Virus record (IMG/VR): IMGVR_UViG_3300046674_000204
Location: 1 to 64,000 of that record
Source: a virus
Length of the DNA stretch: 64,000 nucleotides
Strand: one strand, 5' to 3'
The position numbers and the translations under genes were made by a program. The notes below the pieces were generated by a model. That model saw nothing but the letters and a program-made list of their open reading frames with translations, did no database searches and was not told the origin of the DNA. Positions 38,210 through 48,298 of this stretch are shown piece after piece. Each line of letters begins with the position of its first letter. Within the stretch, counting starts at the first letter, position 1.

Positions 38210-38475
38210 CCTGCATCCTCCGAGAGGCTTTTATGAGCTGTTTTCGCCAAATCACTCAGGGTGATGAGAGATTCACGTTGGCCGGGGTGACGCCATTTGG
38301 CTTCATCACCGGCTACAAAATTGCTGTGGAGTGCATTGCCGACCTCGTAGAGGACCTTCATCAACTGATGGCGAAGGCGAGCGATATCGAGATCTTTTTC
38401 CGCTTCGCTCTCGCGAGCTTCTAATGCCGAAAGCTCAAAGCAGAGATAATCGCTGGTGAAAACTTTCTCGATCAT
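38206..38475 (-). CDS. Small helical protein, unknown
   Basis: 89 residues, mostly helical (CFELSALEARESEAEKDLDI, LRHQLMKVLYEVGNALHSNF). Second gene of the leftward operon, coupled to the Cro-like gene by ATGA. May act in early lytic control or replication. Not recognised. Confidence 0.65.
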   Translation of the reverse strand: MIEKVFTSDYLCFELSALEARESEAEKDLDIARLRHQLMKVLYEVGNALHSNFVAGDEAKWRHPGQRESLITLSDLAKTAHKSLSEDAG

Positions 38476-38675
38476 GCTGTTGTCTCCGCAGCCTTAAACA
38501 GATCGGGGCGGAGTGTCTCGAAGGATATTCCTGTCACACGGCTGACATCGCCAAGGCGCTCAGCAGGAACCTTGTCCCACTGCGCTACCGCGCCCCGCGT
38601 GATGCCGATCTCTCGAGCCAGGCGAGCCAATGGCATCCTGTCTCGAACGGCGTCCATTCCTTCCAACTTCTGCAC
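38472..38675 (-). CDS. Cro-like repressor, YdaS/DicC type
   Basis: 67 residues from a GTG with GGGAG upstream. It has the short Cro/YdaS fold: LARLAREIGITRGAVAQWDK, then VPAERLGDVSRVTGISFETL and RPDLF. First gene of the leftward operon, divergent from the S24 repressor, as in lambdoid immunity regions. Expected to bind the shared operators and favour lytic growth. Confidence 0.82.
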   Translation of the reverse strand: MQKLEGMDAVRDRMPLARLAREIGITRGAVAQWDKVPAERLGDVSRVTGISFETLRPDLFKAAETTA

Positions 38676-38707
38676 TTCCGCACTCCCTGTGTAGCGAGAA
38701 TGATCAA

Positions 38708-38736
38708 GATGTACAGTTTAACTAACGCGCCGTCAA
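38708..38736 (-). promoter_or_regulatory. Leftward promoter of the Cro-like operon
   Basis: On the minus strand TTGACG, 17 bases, TACATC, about 30 bases before the Cro-like start. The -35 is close to consensus, the -10 weak. The -10 side overlaps the operator-like bases at 38710-38726. Confidence 0.5.
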
Positions 38737-38761
38737 GTGAGACTATCGAAGATTTTGTACA
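38710..38761. promoter_or_regulatory. Putative repressor operators with TGTACA
   Basis: Two TGTACA palindromes lie at 38710-38715 and 38756-38761 between the divergent Cro-like and repressor genes. The first is flanked by a GTTAGT half (minus strand GTTAGTTAAACTGTACA). The early promoter at 40.73 kb has a related GTTAGTCTGTACA, which suggests a shared binding site for repressor or Cro. Confidence 0.5.
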
Positions 38762-38783
38762 GGCAGATGGCTATGCTCCAGCC

Positions 38784-39449
38784 ATGGAACTAAACCAACG
38801 GATATTTAAGGCTCGGTCAGACGCAAAGATGACCCAAGAGCAGCTCGCCAACGCTGTCGGGAAAACCCGTGGCGCTGTGGCTCAATGGGAATCTGGTGAA
38901 GTGCGGCCGCGTCATTCAACGCTGCAGTCGATTGCCGAGGCGACGGGAAAGCCGCTTAATTGGCTCGTCAACGGCGTCGATGATGGTGACCCATCCTACC
39001 CAAGAATAGGGTTAGAGGTCGTCGGCGAAGTTGCCGCCGGCATGTGGAAGGAAGGAACGGTTCGCTTTGAAAGGATGTATGAGCCAGTAGCGACCCATCC
39101 TGATTACCCTGGTTATGGGCAAAGGCTTTATCGGGTCTCGGGAAATAGCATCAACAAGATAGCCGCAAACGGAGAGTATCTGCATGCAGTCGAGCTGCAC
39201 GCTGGTGGCATGAAACCGGAACACGGGGATCTAGTGATTGTTCGACGCCTTCAGCACGGATTAGCGGAATACACAGCCAAAACTCTGATATGGGAAGAAG
39301 GGCATTGGTTATTACGCCCAGAAAGCACAGATCCAGACTGGCAAGTAGATATCGAAATGTCAGGCGACAGCGATACCGAGATCGAGATTACCGATATTGT
39401 CATCGCTAAATGGTCGCCGATCGATCGGCGGCGCAAAACTTCGAAATAG
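38784..39449 (+). CDS. S24-family phage repressor (CI-like)
   Basis: 221 residues from the ATG at 38784. The N-terminal helix-turn-helix is LNQRIFKARSDAKMTQEQLA, NAVGKTRGAVAQWESGEVRP. The C-terminal half is an S24/LexA-like domain (EVVGEVAAGMW, LYRVSGNSINKIAANGEYLH, EHGDLVIVRR). The Ser of SGNS is visible; the usual catalytic Lys position is not obvious, so self-cleavage after SOS induction is uncertain. It maintains lysogeny by blocking the Cro and early promoters. Confidence 0.87.
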   Translation: MELNQRIFKARSDAKMTQEQLANAVGKTRGAVAQWESGEVRPRHSTLQSIAEATGKPLNWLVNGVDDGDPSYPRIGLEVVGEVAAGMWKEGTVRFERMYEPVATHPDYPGYGQRLYRVSGNSINKIAANGEYLHAVELHAGGMKPEHGDLVIVRRLQHGLAEYTAKTLIWEEGHWLLRPESTDPDWQVDIEMSGDSDTEIEITDIVIAKWSPIDRRRKTSK

Positions 39450-39794: not shown

Positions 39795-40027
39795 ACCTTC
39801 CCCTCGCTTTGGGCTTTTTCGCCTCAACTTTGCTATTTCCCACTTAAGAACCCAACGTTTTATAGGTCGATCCGCTTATTCTTTTCTCGCGTTTTTTTTG
39901 AGGAAACGGACCAAGACTAAATTAGCGCCCTGTGTGATTACTACCTACTAACCACGCCTTCGCAAGTTGAAAAGTGGTAGATCGGTGGTGCATATCAGAC
40001 GATATATTTTTGTGCCATTTGTGCACC

Positions 40028-40243
40028 ATGGCGAAGGATGACCCTCAATTCAATTTGCGGATCGCGGCCGACCTTAAACAAAAGGTTGCTGCTGCTGCTA
40101 AGGCAAATGATCGATCTGTAACCGCAGAGATAATCGCCAGGCTCGAATCAACGTTCAGCACAGAGCAGCCATATTCAGAAATCACCGCCGTGCATGAAAT
40201 TATCGACAGAGCCAATTTTCTATTGAAGCATTTCAAGAGCTAA
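40028..40243 (+). CDS. Arc-family DNA-binding protein
   Basis: 71 residues from the ATG at 40028, with the ribbon-helix-helix pattern PQFNLRIAADLKQKVAAAAK then ANDRSVTAEIIARLESTFST. No ribosome binding site precedes the ATG, and GATATATTT and GTGCCATTTGTGCACC lie close upstream, so the message may be nearly leaderless and autoregulated. A transcription regulator in the immunity region. Confidence 0.8.
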   Translation: MAKDDPQFNLRIAADLKQKVAAAAKANDRSVTAEIIARLESTFSTEQPYSEITAVHEIIDRANFLLKHFKS

Positions 40244-40834: not shown

Positions 40835-41140
40835 ATGTCTGAGATTTTGTTCCAGTTTGATGAACTCGCAATCGTCCTGAACGGCAAGACCGAGACCGGG
40901 ATGCTGATCGGCGGCACGGCTGAGCTGGTGGATGCCGGCGCTGACTATCCCGGCGAGTTTTACGTCCGCTCCGTCATGCTCGACGGCGGCACGATGCTTC
41001 ATCGGGATCGCACTGTGGATGCTTTCGAGGCTGAGCTTTTCAAGCGCATCGAGGCCGTCATCTGCAACGACAAGTCGGTAATTGGTCGGCACGCCGCGCT
41101 TGAATGGAGCGATGCCTATTCCGAAGCCGTCGCCGCTTAA
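40835..41140 (+). CDS. First early gene, unknown
   Basis: 101 residues with a GAGGATGAGGG ribosome binding site. Beta-alpha composition (FDELAIVLNGKTETGMLIGG, EFYVRSVMLDGG, LFKRIEAVICND). No family recognised. First gene of the rightward operon, so probably made early after infection or induction. Confidence 0.7.
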   Translation: MSEILFQFDELAIVLNGKTETGMLIGGTAELVDAGADYPGEFYVRSVMLDGGTMLHRDRTVDAFEAELFKRIEAVICNDKSVIGRHAALEWSDAYSEAVAA

Positions 41141-41181
41141 CCACCACCACTAGATCCGCTTAGGGGCGGAAGGGGATGAAT

Positions 41182-42426
41182 ATGAAAATCGAAAAACTCA
41201 CACCGGAGCAGGAAGCCTACCTTCCGAAATTTCGAGCCGATTGGCTGGCCGTAGGGCTGTCTACGGCGCGTGTTGATCGCGATCAGTCGACTGCCGCAGT
41301 CAAGGCTCTCTATGCCGCTGCTGGCGAAGCTGAGCCTATGGTGATGCATTTCGACAGCCCGGCACAGTGCATTATGGCTATCAACTTCTTCCGGCACTTC
41401 AAGGCTGGCGCGGAAGAGAAGGCTAATCTCGGGGCTAATCTCAGGGCTAATCTCGGGGCTAATCTCGGGGCTAATCTCGGGGCTAATCTCGGGGCTAATC
41501 TCTGGGCTAATCTCTGGGCTAATCTCTGGGCTAATCTCTGGGCTAATCTCGGGGCTAATCTCGGGGATAATCTCGGGGATAATCTCGGGGCTAATCTCAG
41601 GGCTAATCTCAGGGCTAATCTCAGGGCTAATCTCAGGGCTAATCTCGGGGCTAATCTCGGGGATAATCTCGGGGCTAATCTCAGGGCTAATCTCAGGGCT
41701 AATCTCGGGGCTAATCTCGGGGCTAATCTCGGGGCTAATCTCTGGGCTAATCTCAGGGCTAATCTCAGCTCTTTTGTCGATACGTGGTTCTGGGGCGGCA
41801 TGGATGCGCCGTGGCTCGCGTTTTATGAGTTCGGCCGGCACATCGGCGTGAAATATGAAAAGTCGGCGCATTTTGACGCCTATCTTGAGTACGCCAGATC
41901 TAGCGGGTGGATGTACGCCTACAAGGGCATAGCGTTCATCAGCGATCGTCCTACCATCATCCGTAAGGACGATGAGAACAGACTTCATAGCGAGATCGGC
42001 CCGTCAGTCGCGTTCTCGGACGGCTACGAAATGTACTCATGGCACGGGACTACTGTGCCTGCGCATTGGATCAACGATCGCGAGAACGTCGATCCAGTCG
42101 AAATCCTGAAGACGGAAAATGTTGAGCAAAGAGCCGCTGGCGCGGCCATCGTCGGTTGGCCGAAAATGTTCGATGTTTTGGAAGCTAAGACTGTTGACAA
42201 ACATGCAAACCCTGACATCGGCGAGCTTATCGAGCTGACATTGCCGGGATTGCCTGAGCCTGGACGCTTCCTCAAGGCCGTATGTCCGAGAAACGGAATC
42301 ATCTGTGAAGGCGTACCCCGCATCTCCGACATCGATGGGCTTCCGATCAATACCGCCTTGGCCGCACAGGCATGGCGGATCGGCGACCCACAATCTGAAT
42401 ACATCCACCCCGAGCGTAGAACCTGA
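41182..42426 (+). CDS. DUF6745 protein with 29 tetrapeptide repeats
   Basis: 414 residues; the ATG at 41182 has AGGGG six bases upstream (an in-frame ATG at 41176 is possible). Residues 1-80 form a leader (KIEKLTPEQEAYLPKFRADW). Residues about 81-196 are 29 copies of [A/D]-N-L-[G/R/W], a regular four-residue repeat, which could stack as a beta-solenoid-like rod. The rest is a DUF6745 domain (FVDTWFWGGMDAPWLAFYEF, RLHSEIGPSVAFSDGY, HGTTVPAHWI). Such proteins are often followed by a small partner, as here. Function unknown. Confidence 0.8.
   Translation: MKIEKLTPEQEAYLPKFRADWLAVGLSTARVDRDQSTAAVKALYAAAGEAEPMVMHFDSPAQCIMAINFFRHFKAGAEEKANLGANLRANLGANLGANLGANLGANLWANLWANLWANLWANLGANLGDNLGDNLGANLRANLRANLRANLRANLGANLGDNLGANLRANLRANLGANLGANLGANLWANLRANLSSFVDTWFWGGMDAPWLAFYEFGRHIGVKYEKSAHFDAYLEYARSSGWMYAYKGIAFISDRPTIIRKDDENRLHSEIGPSVAFSDGYEMYSWHGTTVPAHWINDRENVDPVEILKTENVEQRAAGAAIVGWPKMFDVLEAKTVDKHANPDIGELIELTLPGLPEPGRFLKAVCPRNGIICEGVPRISDIDGLPINTALAAQAWRIGDPQSEYIHPERRT
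41422..41769 (+). repeat. 29 tandem 12-base repeats
   Basis: Repeat unit gctaatctcggg with variants (ggg, agg, tgg at the last codon; ggg-gat for Asp). Perfectly in frame for 348 bases. Long runs of identical units make this a slippage hotspot and an assembly risk. Confidence 0.95.
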
Positions 42427-42439
42427 AAGGAAAGTGCAT

Positions 42440-42787
42440 ATGAAACAGGTAATTGGACAGCAGGGCGAATGCAGGATCGTCAAGATCGATGCTCTTCCCG
42501 CCGGCATGGAGACGAAGAAAGTCGATCGTATCGCGAAAGGCTTCGTCATCTCCCACTCTGAAAGTGGTCACCATCATGTCTTGACCGGTGGCGACGTGAT
42601 GGAGCGCATCAACAACGTCCCGGCTGGCATGCAGATATTCTTCGCAATTTTGGATGAACCGCAGTCGTTCTTTCAGGACGCGGCGAACCCGCACGGCGGA
42701 TATGACCTTGATCCCGGCATCTACGAATTTCGTGTCTCGCGTGAATTCGATCCGTTCGCCGAACAGGCCCGGAGAGTTGCCGACTAA
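42440..42787 (+). CDS. Small partner of the DUF6745 protein
   Basis: 115 residues with GAAAGGAAAG upstream and 13 bases after the DUF6745 gene. It has a His cluster SGHHHVLTGGDVMER and ends in an acidic region (YDLDPGIYEFRVSREFDPFA). Proteins of this kind commonly sit right after DUF6745 genes, so the two probably act together. A metal-binding role is possible from the histidines; not shown. Confidence 0.7.
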   Translation: MKQVIGQQGECRIVKIDALPAGMETKKVDRIAKGFVISHSESGHHHVLTGGDVMERINNVPAGMQIFFAILDEPQSFFQDAANPHGGYDLDPGIYEFRVSREFDPFAEQARRVAD

Positions 42788-45326: not shown

Positions 45327-46004
45327 ATGAGTTATTTGTATCTCGATATCGAAACTGTGCCAGTCCAGAGCGAAGAGGCGAAAGCTTTTATCTCGGCCAA
45401 GGTAAAGCCGCCAGCGCAGATGAAGAAGGCTGAAACCATCCAGGCTTGGGAAACTGAGCAGAAACCCGCAGCTCTCGAAGAGGCGATTGCCAAAACCTCT
45501 TTTGACGCGGCCTTTGGTCAGATTTGCTGCATCGGCTTGGCATTCAATGATAGCCCCGCAACATCCATATCGTGGCCAATTAACGCCGCTTCTGAAATGC
45601 TGGCAATTAAAGGCTTTTTTGAAATAACCAGTGATCTGATCGGAAATGGATTCCCGACCATCGTCGGGCATTACATCGCCGGTTTTGATATCAAGTTTAT
45701 CTGGCAGCGATGCATGGTTCTGGGCATCCGGGTTCCTGCATGGTTCCCCAAAGACCCCAAGCCGTGGGATGGCGGCATCTTCGACACTATGACGGCATGG
45801 GCGGGGCCGAGAGATACCATCAGCATGGATGATCTTTGCCGCGCCCTCGGCATTGAAGGCAAAGGCGATATTGACGGTTCGATGATCGGCAGGCTGTTCG
45901 CCGAAGGCAAACATGAGGTCATCGCCTCTTACTGCCGAGGTGATATTGATCGTACGCGGACGATCCACCGCAAGATGATGGCTGCTCTTGGGGAGGCTGC
46001 GTAA
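45327..46004 (+). CDS. DEDD-family 3'-5' exonuclease (PolB-exo-like)
   Basis: 225 residues with the DEDD exonuclease motifs: YLYLDIETVP (Asp, Glu), HYIAGFDIKFIWQR (Asp) and ASYCRGDIDRTRTIH (Asp) with the spacing of the DnaQ/PolB exonuclease type. It lies just before the Rad52-like gene, so it probably makes 3' or 5' resected ends for annealing recombination. Confidence 0.82.
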   Translation: MSYLYLDIETVPVQSEEAKAFISAKVKPPAQMKKAETIQAWETEQKPAALEEAIAKTSFDAAFGQICCIGLAFNDSPATSISWPINAASEMLAIKGFFEITSDLIGNGFPTIVGHYIAGFDIKFIWQRCMVLGIRVPAWFPKDPKPWDGGIFDTMTAWAGPRDTISMDDLCRALGIEGKGDIDGSMIGRLFAEGKHEVIASYCRGDIDRTRTIHRKMMAALGEAA

Positions 46005-46669
46005 TGGCGACCACCGAAGACATCAAACTCTTGTTCTCCGAGTTCCCCCGAGACGCGATTAGCTGGCGTGCGCAGTCCGTAACCAAGAATGGCGATAAGG
46101 CACTTGCACTCGCCTATATCGACGCCCGCGACGTTATGGACCGCCTGGATAGCATCATCGGTTCGGATGGTTGGCAGGACCGCTATGAGTTCAGCGGGCC
46201 AAGGACGATCTGCTACCTGTCGATTAAGGTTGACGGTGAATGGATCACCAAAGCGGACGGTGCGGGCGATACAGACGTCGAGGCCGAAAAGGGTGCCATC
46301 TCAGACGCTTTCAAGCGCGCAGCGGTAAAGTGGGGCATAGGTCGATACCTTTATGCCATGCCGACCCCATGGGTTCCTTGTGAAAGCTATGAATCTGGCG
46401 GAAAAAATCGCTGGAAGAGCTGGACCGATGATCCGTGGAACCATGTGCGCATGCCGAACGCGCCCAAGCCTTCCGCCGCTGCCCAAAAGAGAGACCTTGA
46501 GGAGATCGAAAAAGATCTGATCGATTGCGGATCTCTGGCGGCTGTAGATCGCTGTGCTTCCCAATGGAAAGACAAAGCCATCAAGGACGGTTGGTCGTCT
46601 GAATATAAGCAAGCCGCCGCTTCTAAGTTTGCGGCTCGGCGCACCTACCTTGAAAAGGAAGCAGCATGA
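46004..46669 (+). CDS. Rad52-family single-strand annealing protein
   Basis: 221 residues. The core is that of Rad52/22-like phage proteins: WRAQSVTKNGDKALALAYID, ARDVMDRLDSIIGSDGWQDR, GEWITKADGAGDTDVEAEKG, AISDAFKRAAVKWGIGRYLY. The C-terminal 70 residues are a charged tail. It anneals single strands in phage recombination and partners with the exonuclease before it. Confidence 0.85.
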   Translation: MATTEDIKLLFSEFPRDAISWRAQSVTKNGDKALALAYIDARDVMDRLDSIIGSDGWQDRYEFSGPRTICYLSIKVDGEWITKADGAGDTDVEAEKGAISDAFKRAAVKWGIGRYLYAMPTPWVPCESYESGGKNRWKSWTDDPWNHVRMPNAPKPSAAAQKRDLEEIEKDLIDCGSLAAVDRCASQWKDKAIKDGWSSEYKQAAASKFAARRTYLEKEAA

Positions 46670-46964: not shown

Positions 46965-47465
46965 ATGAAGGAAGTATGGAAAACTGTGCCAAGTGCACCG
47001 CATTTTTTAGTCTCTGACGAGGGTCGGATAATGGTTTCGCCACACTACAAGGAAATGCCCTACGGTGGGATGAGACGATATGGCGGGCACCCTTATTTGG
47101 GAGTCTGGAACAAAGCTGATGGCCGATTCATAATTGTCCATAAAGGGCGGACATATAAGGTTGCTCCTCTGGTGTGCGAAGCTTTCAACGGGGGTAAAGT
47201 AGACCCAACCCACGTGTGCATGCACATTGACGAAGATGCCCGCAACAATAGGCCTGCGAACCTCGCTTGGGGTACTCAAAAAGAGAACTTGAACGCACCG
47301 AAATACATAGCGCGGCTTAAGAATCGACCTGATTCAGCAATTTGCAAATGCTGTAAAGAGACATTTTCTCCACGGTACTCTAAGCAGATGTTTTGCTCGT
47401 GCCATTGTTCGGGTCATTTCAACAATAAAACAAGAGCTGGGCTTTCAGCCGAGTGGAGGCGCTGA
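46965..47465 (+). CDS. HNH endonuclease with NUMOD4
   Basis: 166 residues. NUMOD4 at the start (WKTVPSAPHFLVSDEGRIMV), then an HNH-type V-C-x-x-H-I-D-E-D and NNRPANLAWGTQKEN. A zinc-type C-terminus (ICKCCKETFSPRYSKQMFCS) follows. Its stop overlaps the next start as TGATG. Placed inside the recombination group as a likely mobile insertion. Confidence 0.83.
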   Translation: MKEVWKTVPSAPHFLVSDEGRIMVSPHYKEMPYGGMRRYGGHPYLGVWNKADGRFIIVHKGRTYKVAPLVCEAFNGGKVDPTHVCMHIDEDARNNRPANLAWGTQKENLNAPKYIARLKNRPDSAICKCCKETFSPRYSKQMFCSCHCSGHFNNKTRAGLSAEWRR

Positions 47466-48298
47466 TGGGCACGGTCAACCGGACAATCGAGAATGACCAA
47501 CAAAAGGCGATGGTTATTCGCCTTATCGAAAACAGGGAATTCCCATTCACGTTGTCGTTGACAGATGGGAAGCACCGTAGCACGGCACAGAACCGCCTCC
47601 AGATGCTTTGGATGAAGGAGATTGCCGAGCAGCGCGGGGATATGACCCCGGCTGAGGTGCGAGCCTATTGCAAGCTCACCATTGGCGTTCCGATCCTTCG
47701 CGATGACAATGAAGCGTTCCGCATCCGGTATGACGAAATCCTCAAGCCGATGCCCTATGAGCACAAGATGAAGATCATGGGAGAGCCTATTGATCTGCCC
47801 GTCACGCGTCTTATGACAACGGCGCAGAAGACAAAATATCTTGACGGTATCATCCGTCATTTCTCTGAGCAGGGTATCATCCTCACCCTGCCAGACGATC
47901 ACATTCAAGAATCCGGCTCCTCCGCCCCCCTGGAGCCGGTACCAGCGGATGACCGCCCCCCTTCGGTCTCCGCAGCACCAGACGACGCCGCCCCCTCTCC
48001 GTCGTCTGGTGCTCCCTCTTCTGTCGATCTGGAATGGCTCAGGAACGTGGTCCGCATGCTGTGGGCCGCTACCAACTACCGAGGCGATATCGGCGTCCTG
48101 AAGGCCCAGAAAGTCGCGGCGCTGGCATCCTATCCAAAGCCGGATGGATGTTCCGAGATCGTCACCCGCAAGGCCGAGGCAGCCTATGGCTATTGCCGTC
48201 AGATCGTCTTGGGAGAACTCGAAAAGTCCGATGGGCTCGCCATGGTGGCCGGTGTTGTGGGCTGTGATCAACATGAGATCGGATGCGGCAATGGCTGA
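47465..48298 (+). CDS. NinB-like recombination protein
   Basis: 277 residues from the ATG at 47465. Residues 12-135 resemble the NinB/Orf recombination mediator family: LIENREFPFTLSLTDGKHRS, TAQNRLQMLWMKEIAEQRGD, PMPYEHKMKIMGEPIDLPVT. A Pro/Ser/Ala-rich linker (about 150-190) joins a C-terminal helical domain absent from lambda NinB. It would help load annealing proteins on SSB-coated DNA. Confidence 0.72.
   Translation: MGTVNRTIENDQQKAMVIRLIENREFPFTLSLTDGKHRSTAQNRLQMLWMKEIAEQRGDMTPAEVRAYCKLTIGVPILRDDNEAFRIRYDEILKPMPYEHKMKIMGEPIDLPVTRLMTTAQKTKYLDGIIRHFSEQGIILTLPDDHIQESGSSAPLEPVPADDRPPSVSAAPDDAAPSPSSGAPSSVDLEWLRNVVRMLWAATNYRGDIGVLKAQKVAALASYPKPDGCSEIVTRKAEAAYGYCRQIVLGELEKSDGLAMVAGVVGCDQHEIGCGNG

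What the first reader, a model, noticed from the sequence alone, without database searches (positions are those of the whole stretch)
41182..42787. Early two-gene unit: DUF6745 protein with tetrapeptide-repeat rod and a His-rich partner
The first large early protein has 29 perfect four-residue repeats ([A/D]NL[G/R/W]) encoded by 12-base tandem repeats, then a DUF6745 domain, and is followed at 13 bases by a small protein with a histidine cluster. This is not the five-residue period of pentapeptide-repeat proteins. Such a rod could act as a DNA mimic or a spacer; an early, high-copy repeat protein with an associated small protein is a good candidate for an undescribed anti-host or anti-defence function.
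Basis: partly seen in the sequence, partly recalled or inferred. Interest (0 to 1): 0.65.

Follow-up and report, generated by a model that had tools for sequence, protein, structure and literature searches.

The report
Phage four-residue-repeat protein and partner
A temperate phage carries an early two-gene unit whose first protein holds a fast-changing string of four-residue repeats between two conserved domains, and whose second is an almost inseparable small histidine-rich partner; the repeats show signs of selection for variability, as might be expected of a tunable weapon in the arms race between phage and host.

Summary
In detail: a 416-aa DUF6745 protein (P, 41176-42426) with 29 in-frame 12-bp repeats ([A/D]NL[G/R/W/S]), followed after 13 nt by a 115-aa protein (S, 42440-42787). 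It is a family feature. Of 108 non-redundant DUF6745 loci, 102 carry an S relative nearby, in either gene order (at least 6 switches). 96 carry a strictly period-4 array (7-106 copies), although the repeat word changes at least 24 times on the tree. Unit variation is mostly amino-acid-changing (314:31, about 25% silent expected, p=7e-15) and concentrated in two codons. Phages with identical flanks differ only in the array. AlphaFold2 gives a confident N-domain, DUF6745 domain and S (all-beta), and a low-confidence helix for the array; nothing matches the PDB. Arrays are not acidic, so the DNA-mimic idea fails; no reverse transcriptase was found. Closest precedent: mycobacteriophage Tweety gp54, not homologous but with the same N-array-C layout, where repeat number tunes counter-defence. 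Best reading: an early effector in which a variable helical array sets geometry or surface for contacting a changing host or defence target, S binding DUF6745. Counter-defence is inferred by analogy, not shown. Repeat-less relatives (Streptomyces, cyanophage) show the core pair works without the array.

The parts
41176..42426 (+). P: 416-aa DUF6745 protein (N-domain, tetrapeptide array, DUF6745 region)
   Evidence: ORF and sequence; Pfam DUF6745 1.4e-20; homologs
41176..41421 (+). conserved N-terminal domain, residues 1-82, AF2 pLDDT about 95 over residues 11-60
   Evidence: N-domain HMM also scores the Mycobacterium prophage, Nostoc, cyanophage and Streptomyces proteins, E 1.8e-23 to 3e-10
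41422..41769 (+). 29 in-frame 12-bp units, [A/D]NL[G/R/W/S]; apart from the last unit, variation only at base 2 (A/D) and base 10 (G/R/W) of the unit
   Evidence: TRF; units; predicted helix at pLDDT about 50-72
41791..42204 (+). DUF6745 domain (PF20530); the conserved region runs on to the C-terminus, residues 200-416, pLDDT mostly 89-98
42440..42787 (+). S: 115-aa His-rich all-beta partner (RQGD/HSESGHHH family); G9, E41, H46, H85, R111, D115 invariant over 43 sequences
40835..41140 (+). 101-aa ORF of unknown function directly upstream, probably the same early transcript
   Evidence: no match
38700..39449 (+). CI-like repressor (HTH_3 and S24), context
46004..46669 (+). Erf-like ssDNA-annealing protein, early recombination module, context
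47453..48298 (+). NinB/Orf recombination mediator, context

Best explanation
P and S form a two-gene early effector unit. P has two conserved folded parts (N-domain and DUF6745) joined by a tetrapeptide array that is probably helical; S is a small beta protein with a conserved histidine/acid cluster, perhaps metal-binding, that most likely binds DUF6745. The array changes length by whole in-frame units and carries two variable residues per unit ({A,D,S,G} and {G,R,W} or {D,R,Y,H}). This lets the phage retune quickly the spacing or the contact surface with which P engages a changing cellular partner. The most likely partner is a host or prophage defence protein, so the unit would act as tunable counter-defence, as reported for the unrelated Tweety gp54. 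Shown here: pairing, period, copy-number change, coding-biased unit variation, early position. Inferred: helix, P-S binding, metal binding, target, counter-defence.
For: 102 of 108 non-redundant DUF6745 loci have S nearby, 90 downstream and 12 upstream; gene order switched at least 6 times while adjacency was kept, which argues for a functional partnership. 96 of 108 have arrays of period 4 only, 7-106 copies, median 26.5 over 68 complete arrays, through at least 24 changes of repeat word (shuffled mean 53). Between-unit codon variants are 314 amino-acid-changing against 31 silent (25% silent expected, p=7e-15), concentrated at codon 1 base 2 and codon 4 base 1; Ala and Asp codons share the third base in 48 of 48 arrays, so silent bases are homogenised while coding variation is kept. 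L126/L128 are 1500/1500 identical on both sides and differ within P by exactly one unit; L026/L028, L005/L011 and L046/L056 differ essentially in the array. Early context. Tweety gp54: 40-48 tetrapeptide repeats between unique N and C regions, and defence-escape mutants change the repeat number (PMC9262239; PMC8549241).
Against: No experiment bears on this family. Tweety gp54 is not homologous (no match to the N, DUF6745 or S HMMs), so the functional transfer is by architecture only. Repeat-less relatives on Streptomyces plasmids, in Nostoc and in cyanophage LMM01 show that the core protein works without the array and outside phage early operons. The array helix is predicted at low confidence. 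Some copy-number differences could be short-read assembly artefacts.
Confidence: 0.4

Rival explanations
1. The pair is a general module of mobile elements and bacteria, for example a metal-dependent modification or regulatory unit, with an ordinary function; the array is a slippage-prone linker whose length and composition matter little.
For: Repeat-less members with the same N-domain, DUF6745 and an S-like partner on Streptomyces plasmids, and cyanophage LMM01 with its partner gp175. Copy number ranges from 7 to 106 with no evident optimum. Tandem 12-bp repeats slip readily (general knowledge).
Against: A neutral linker should not show 314:31 amino-acid-changing variation, a restricted alphabet that favours A/D (a transversion; D 694 against V 10 copies) and strict maintenance of period 4 across different words.
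Confidence: 0.25
2. The pair is itself a defence or superinfection-exclusion unit carried by prophages and plasmids, the array being a variable sensor of incoming phages.
For: Found on temperate phages and in bacterial genome contigs, on plasmids and in a Mycobacterium abscessus prophage. Variable recognition surfaces are typical of conflict systems (general knowledge).
Against: It sits in the early lytic/recombination operon rather than in a lysogenically expressed cargo site. No PADLOC defence match outside the array.
Confidence: 0.15
3. The array works as DNA (iteron-like sites or a recombination hotspot) and its translation is incidental.
For: It is a near-perfect tandem DNA repeat in an early operon next to replication and recombination genes.
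Against: Repeat DNA words differ among phages (30 different modal core hexamers) while the 4-residue pattern is kept, silent positions are nearly fixed within arrays, and the array indels in the clean close pairs are multiples of 3.
Confidence: 0.04
4. The array is a DNA mimic.
For: Repeat-rod proteins of the pentapeptide class can mimic DNA (general knowledge).
Against: Arrays are near neutral: mean net charge -0.04 per residue, this one +5 over 116 residues. Period 4, not 5.
Confidence: 0.02

Closest known systems
Mycobacteriophage Tweety gp54 and relatives Che8 gp57, PMC gp51 (PMC2884959, PMC9262239)
   Same: 12-bp/4-residue in-frame repeats between unique N- and C-terminal regions; copy number varies between relatives (48, 26, 15); variation at first and second codon positions, including G/W; presumed non-essential
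   Different: No detectable homology of the N or C regions, no DUF6745, no S relative detected next to it
Pfam DUF6745 (PF20530) proteins
   Same: P is a member by curated score; the N-domain and an S-like partner also occur in actinobacterial and cyanophage members
   Different: Streptomyces, Nostoc, Nonomuraea, a Mycolicibacterium plasmid, Hwanghaeella and LMM01 members lack the array; the domain has no described function and no held paper names it
Type I restriction specificity subunit HsdS
   Same: From general knowledge, some HsdS have tetrapeptide repeats in a helical spacer whose number sets the distance between two domains; PADLOC Specificity_I matches P's array at 66 bits
   Different: The match lies only in the array and vanishes or weakens for other repeat words; no target-recognition domain was matched
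Pentapeptide-repeat proteins (Qnr, MfpA)
   Same: Tandem short residue repeats with A, N, L
   Different: Period 4 not 5; predicted helical not beta-helical; no match to Pfam pentapeptide models
Bordetella phage variable region VR2 (bbp36), as discussed in PMC2884959
   Same: Variable-copy in-frame repeats in a non-essential phage gene
   Different: 24-bp unit; different protein

Membership tests
DUF6745 (PF20530) | Match above Pfam's gathering score | tested here: met
   73.9 bits against 27, E 1.4e-20; 74.8 bits
Tweety gp54 family | Homologous N and C regions | tested here: not met
   No match of Tweety gp54 to the N-domain, DUF6745 or S HMMs
Tweety gp54 family | Central variable-number tetrapeptide array coded by 12-bp units | tested here: met
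Tweety gp54 family | Counter-defence activity tuned by repeat number | not testable with these tools
   Needs plating experiments
Pentapeptide-repeat proteins | Five-residue period | tested here: not met
   Self-match score 85.8 at period 4, 2 at period 5
DNA-mimic proteins | Strongly acidic surface | tested here: not met
   Array +5; family mean -0.04 per residue
HsdS specificity subunits | Two target-recognition domains flanking the repeats | tested here: not met
   PADLOC match confined to array residues 137-198, profile 156-217 of 439
Diversity-generating retroelement targets | Reverse transcriptase in the same phage | tested here: not met
   No RVT_1 match in 11 phage records including this one; records may be fragments and an RT elsewhere in the host is not excluded
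Cupins or other known small beta-barrels (for S) | Fold match | tested here: inconclusive
   Model pLDDT 90.8 but best PDB Z 4.0 and no Foldseek E below 0.001

The most novel reading that the evidence does not exclude
The array is a combinatorial recognition rod: each four-residue unit offers two variable residues, drawn almost independently from {A,D} and {G,R,W} (or D/R/Y/H) beside a constant two-residue core. Unit gain, loss and substitution under diversifying selection create new rods that match changing host or defence proteins, with S and DUF6745 as the constant executing or docking part. It would be a modular, evolvable protein code, comparable in logic to the variable repeat residues of TAL effectors but unrelated to them.
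Probability: 0.25. Interest if true: 0.85.

Novelty: new variant of a known kind. Interest (0 to 1): 0.62.

Why it matters
Tweety gp54 is the only tetrapeptide-repeat phage protein for which I found a function, and how repeat number tunes counter-defence is described as obscure (PMC8549241). This unrelated family shows the same architecture in 96 sampled phage and bacterial loci over several phyla, with a conserved partner gene and a measurable signature of selection on the repeat units. That makes the tuning idea testable in many systems and gives a search rule for similar arrays in other phage proteins.

Tried and rejected
DNA mimicry: rejected on charge. DNA-only role of the array: words differ while protein period and silent-site homogeneity are kept. 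DGR diversification, attractive because several arrays vary as NNC or NGG codons: no reverse transcriptase in 11 phage records, and the alphabet is far narrower than adenine mutagenesis would give. Helical-face pattern: identity and aromatic autocorrelation of the variable residues along arrays is essentially flat at lags of 1-20 units, so no periodic face was found. HsdS membership: PADLOC hit only in the array. Fold searches: P model best Z 3.2, S model best Z 4.0, no Foldseek hit below 0.001 in PDB (P and S) or BFVD (S); profile searches of PDB sequences gave only low-complexity or insignificant hits. tblastn of S against named phages: no match, although HMMs later scored relatives in LMM01 (gp175), prophiGD102-1 (gene 37) and MW202476. 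Nucleotide search of the first 25 kb against named phages: no match. The original Tweety counter-defence paper is not held; its findings are cited through two reviews.

Full report
OBSERVATION. The window belongs to a 64,763-bp IMG/VR virus record. P runs from 41176 to 42426 (+), 416 aa; S from 42440 to 42787 (+), 115 aa, 13 nt after P's stop. The array is the strongest tandem repeat of the window: 12-bp unit, 28.8 copies, 95% matches, no indels. It reads as 29 units [A/D]NL-X, 28 of them ending in G, R or W and the last in S. DUF6745 follows at residues 206-343 (1.4e-20). S has no match in Pfam, PHROGs, NCBIfam or PADLOC.

SETTING. A small HTH regulator (38475-38675, -) and a CI/S24-type repressor (38700-39449) lie upstream. 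The pair stands near the start of a rightward early operon that continues with HNH endonucleases, a nucleotidyltransferase, a 3'-5' exonuclease, an Erf annealing protein and NinB/Orf. In related loci, recurrent neighbours within a few kb look like repressors, DNA methyltransferases, exonucleases, HNH, Erf, RecT and helicase proteins; these names are my reading of the cluster sequences, not family searches.

THE PAIR. Scans with P, S and alignments gave 108 non-redundant DUF6745 loci from phages, prophages, plasmids and genomes. In 102 an S relative was found, 90 downstream and 12 upstream; in all but one (L072, 2 kb away) it lies within 600 nt. Because some loci were found through S, the fairer subset is those from L063 on, found through DUF6745: 50 of 57 have S within 600 nt. 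On a tree of the DUF6745 domain the gene order switches at least 6 times. Lasting adjacency through order changes argues for a shared function.

The S family reaches further than BLAST shows. An HMM of proteobacterial-phage S proteins scores the protein next to DUF6745 in MW202476 (4.8e-22), cyanophage LMM01 gp175 (9.3e-6) and Mycobacterium prophage prophiGD102-1 gene 37 (7.1e-5); the Streptomyces neighbours score 0.009-0.011 (E-values for a set of 10,000), weak alone but backed by position and by the RQGD...GEVTGHAH and C-terminal RQREY...VAD motifs.

THE ARRAY. 96 of 108 loci have an array of period 4 and of no other short period (mean self-match score 51 at period 4, about 1.8 at periods 3, 5, 6 and 7). 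Complete arrays (68) hold 7 to 106 copies, median 26.5. The core of the word varies: QV 32, AT 27, QL 12, NL 10, SV 7, SL 4, AV 3, and one misframed. On the DUF6745 tree the word changes at least 24 times (shuffled mean 53, minimum 46), so words are inherited but have often been replaced, always in period 4. Twelve loci show no array: five are fragments (L020, L027, L039, L040, L054) and seven look real (LMM01, Hwanghaeella, two Streptomyces plasmids, a Mycolicibacterium plasmid, Nostoc and Nonomuraea).

SELECTION. Between units of one array, distinct single-base codon variants are 314 amino-acid-changing and 31 silent, where equal mutation would give about 25% silent (binomial p = 7e-15). They lie mainly at codon 1 base 2 (A/D) and codon 4 base 1 (G/R/W, or D/Y/H/R). 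In 48 of 48 arrays with both Ala and Asp the third base is shared (GCT with GAT, or GCC with GAC), so silent sites are homogenised within an array while the coding alternatives are kept. Mutation alone does not explain this easily: A to V is a transition, A to D a transversion, yet unit position 1 holds D 694 times and V 10 times. In Q/N/S-core arrays the two variable residues assort almost independently across the unit boundary (G, R and W are each followed by A and D in nearly the same ratio), and there is no clear order along the array. The test treats variants in different arrays as independent, which related phages violate in part; the excess is large enough that I do not think this changes the conclusion.

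TURNOVER. L126 and L128 are identical over 1500 bases on both sides and differ within P by exactly one 12-bp unit. L026 and L028 have identical upstream 1500 bases and differ within P only by array indels of 24 and 81 bases. L005 and L011 share identical downstream sequence and differ by array indels of 12, 12, 24 and 60. These are metagenome assemblies, so collapse or expansion by the assembler is possible; arrays are also present in isolate genomes such as Rhizobium lusitanum (L070) and Sphingomonas laterariae (L071).

STRUCTURE. AlphaFold2 with 47 sequences gives P a confident N-domain (pLDDT about 95) and C-terminal region (mostly 89-98); the array is modelled as helix with a break, at pLDDT about 50-72. 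S is confident (90.8): mostly strands and a C-terminal helix. Neither has a convincing PDB match, and S has none among viral models. Invariant or nearly invariant residues of S (E10, H39, E41, H44, H45, H46, H85, E102, D115) suggest a metal or catalytic site; this is inference.

FUNCTION. The nearest precedent is Tweety gp54. The 2007 genome paper described its 12-bp/4-residue array, with variation at first and second codon positions and 48, 26 and 15 copies in three phages, and proposed selection for variation (PMC2884959). Later work, cited in two reviews (PMC9262239, PMC8549241), showed that defence-escape mutants against the prophage systems of Phrann and MichelleMyBell gain or lose repeats in gp54. 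P shares no detected domain with gp54. The shared features are the layout, unit turnover and coding-biased unit variation. On that basis I take tunable counter-defence as the most likely function (0.4), an ordinary function with a tolerated variable linker next (0.25), and a prophage-borne defence or exclusion unit third (0.15). DNA mimicry and a DNA-only role fail their tests.

NOVELTY. No held paper mentions DUF6745. The kind of thing (a phage protein with a variable tetrapeptide array) is known from Tweety. New here are a second, unrelated and much wider family, its near-inseparable partner S, and the quantitative signature of selection and turnover. I rate it a new variant of a known kind.

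Noticed in passing
L087 4966-6588 and L091 4124-5588: On two Streptomyces megaplasmids a repeat-less pair (S-like gene upstream of DUF6745) lies beside the STM4013/STM4014/STM4015 cluster (radical SAM genes STM4011-4012 seen in L087 only); the link is unexplained.
   Followed up: no
L066 2645-3769 (Tweety gp54): Tweety's array varies G/W and S/Y through first- and second-position changes with third bases fixed, as in the DUF6745 arrays, although the proteins share no detected domain.
   Followed up: partly
window 41422-41769 and arrays of L012, L016, L023, L029: PADLOC models Specificity_I and REase_II (nicking endonuclease) match arrays only, so some members of those defence families seem to hold four-residue repeats themselves.
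   Followed up: partly
L097 and L093: Two relatives of P that group together on the tree carry 106 and 16 units of the NL word, the largest copy-number contrast seen.
   Followed up: no
window 41137-41988 (-) and 41310-41801 (-): Long minus-strand ORFs (283 and 163 aa) over the array are open because a 12-bp repeat without stops stays open in those frames; probably not genes.
   Followed up: partly
L122 7646-8554 and similar ORFs in 16 loci: A protein that looks like a DNA cytosine methyltransferase recurs about 2 kb downstream of the pair in 16 loci, near exonuclease and annealing genes; not tested against family libraries.
   Followed up: no
window 41980-42080 (within P): The DUF6745 stretch RLHSEIGPSVAFSDGYEMYSWHGTTVP resembles the LH..GPA..DG..WHG type of MORN-like repeat as I recall it; not tested.
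   Followed up: no
window 39974-40243 (+): Arc-like ribbon-helix-helix regulator between the repressor and the early operon.
   Followed up: no
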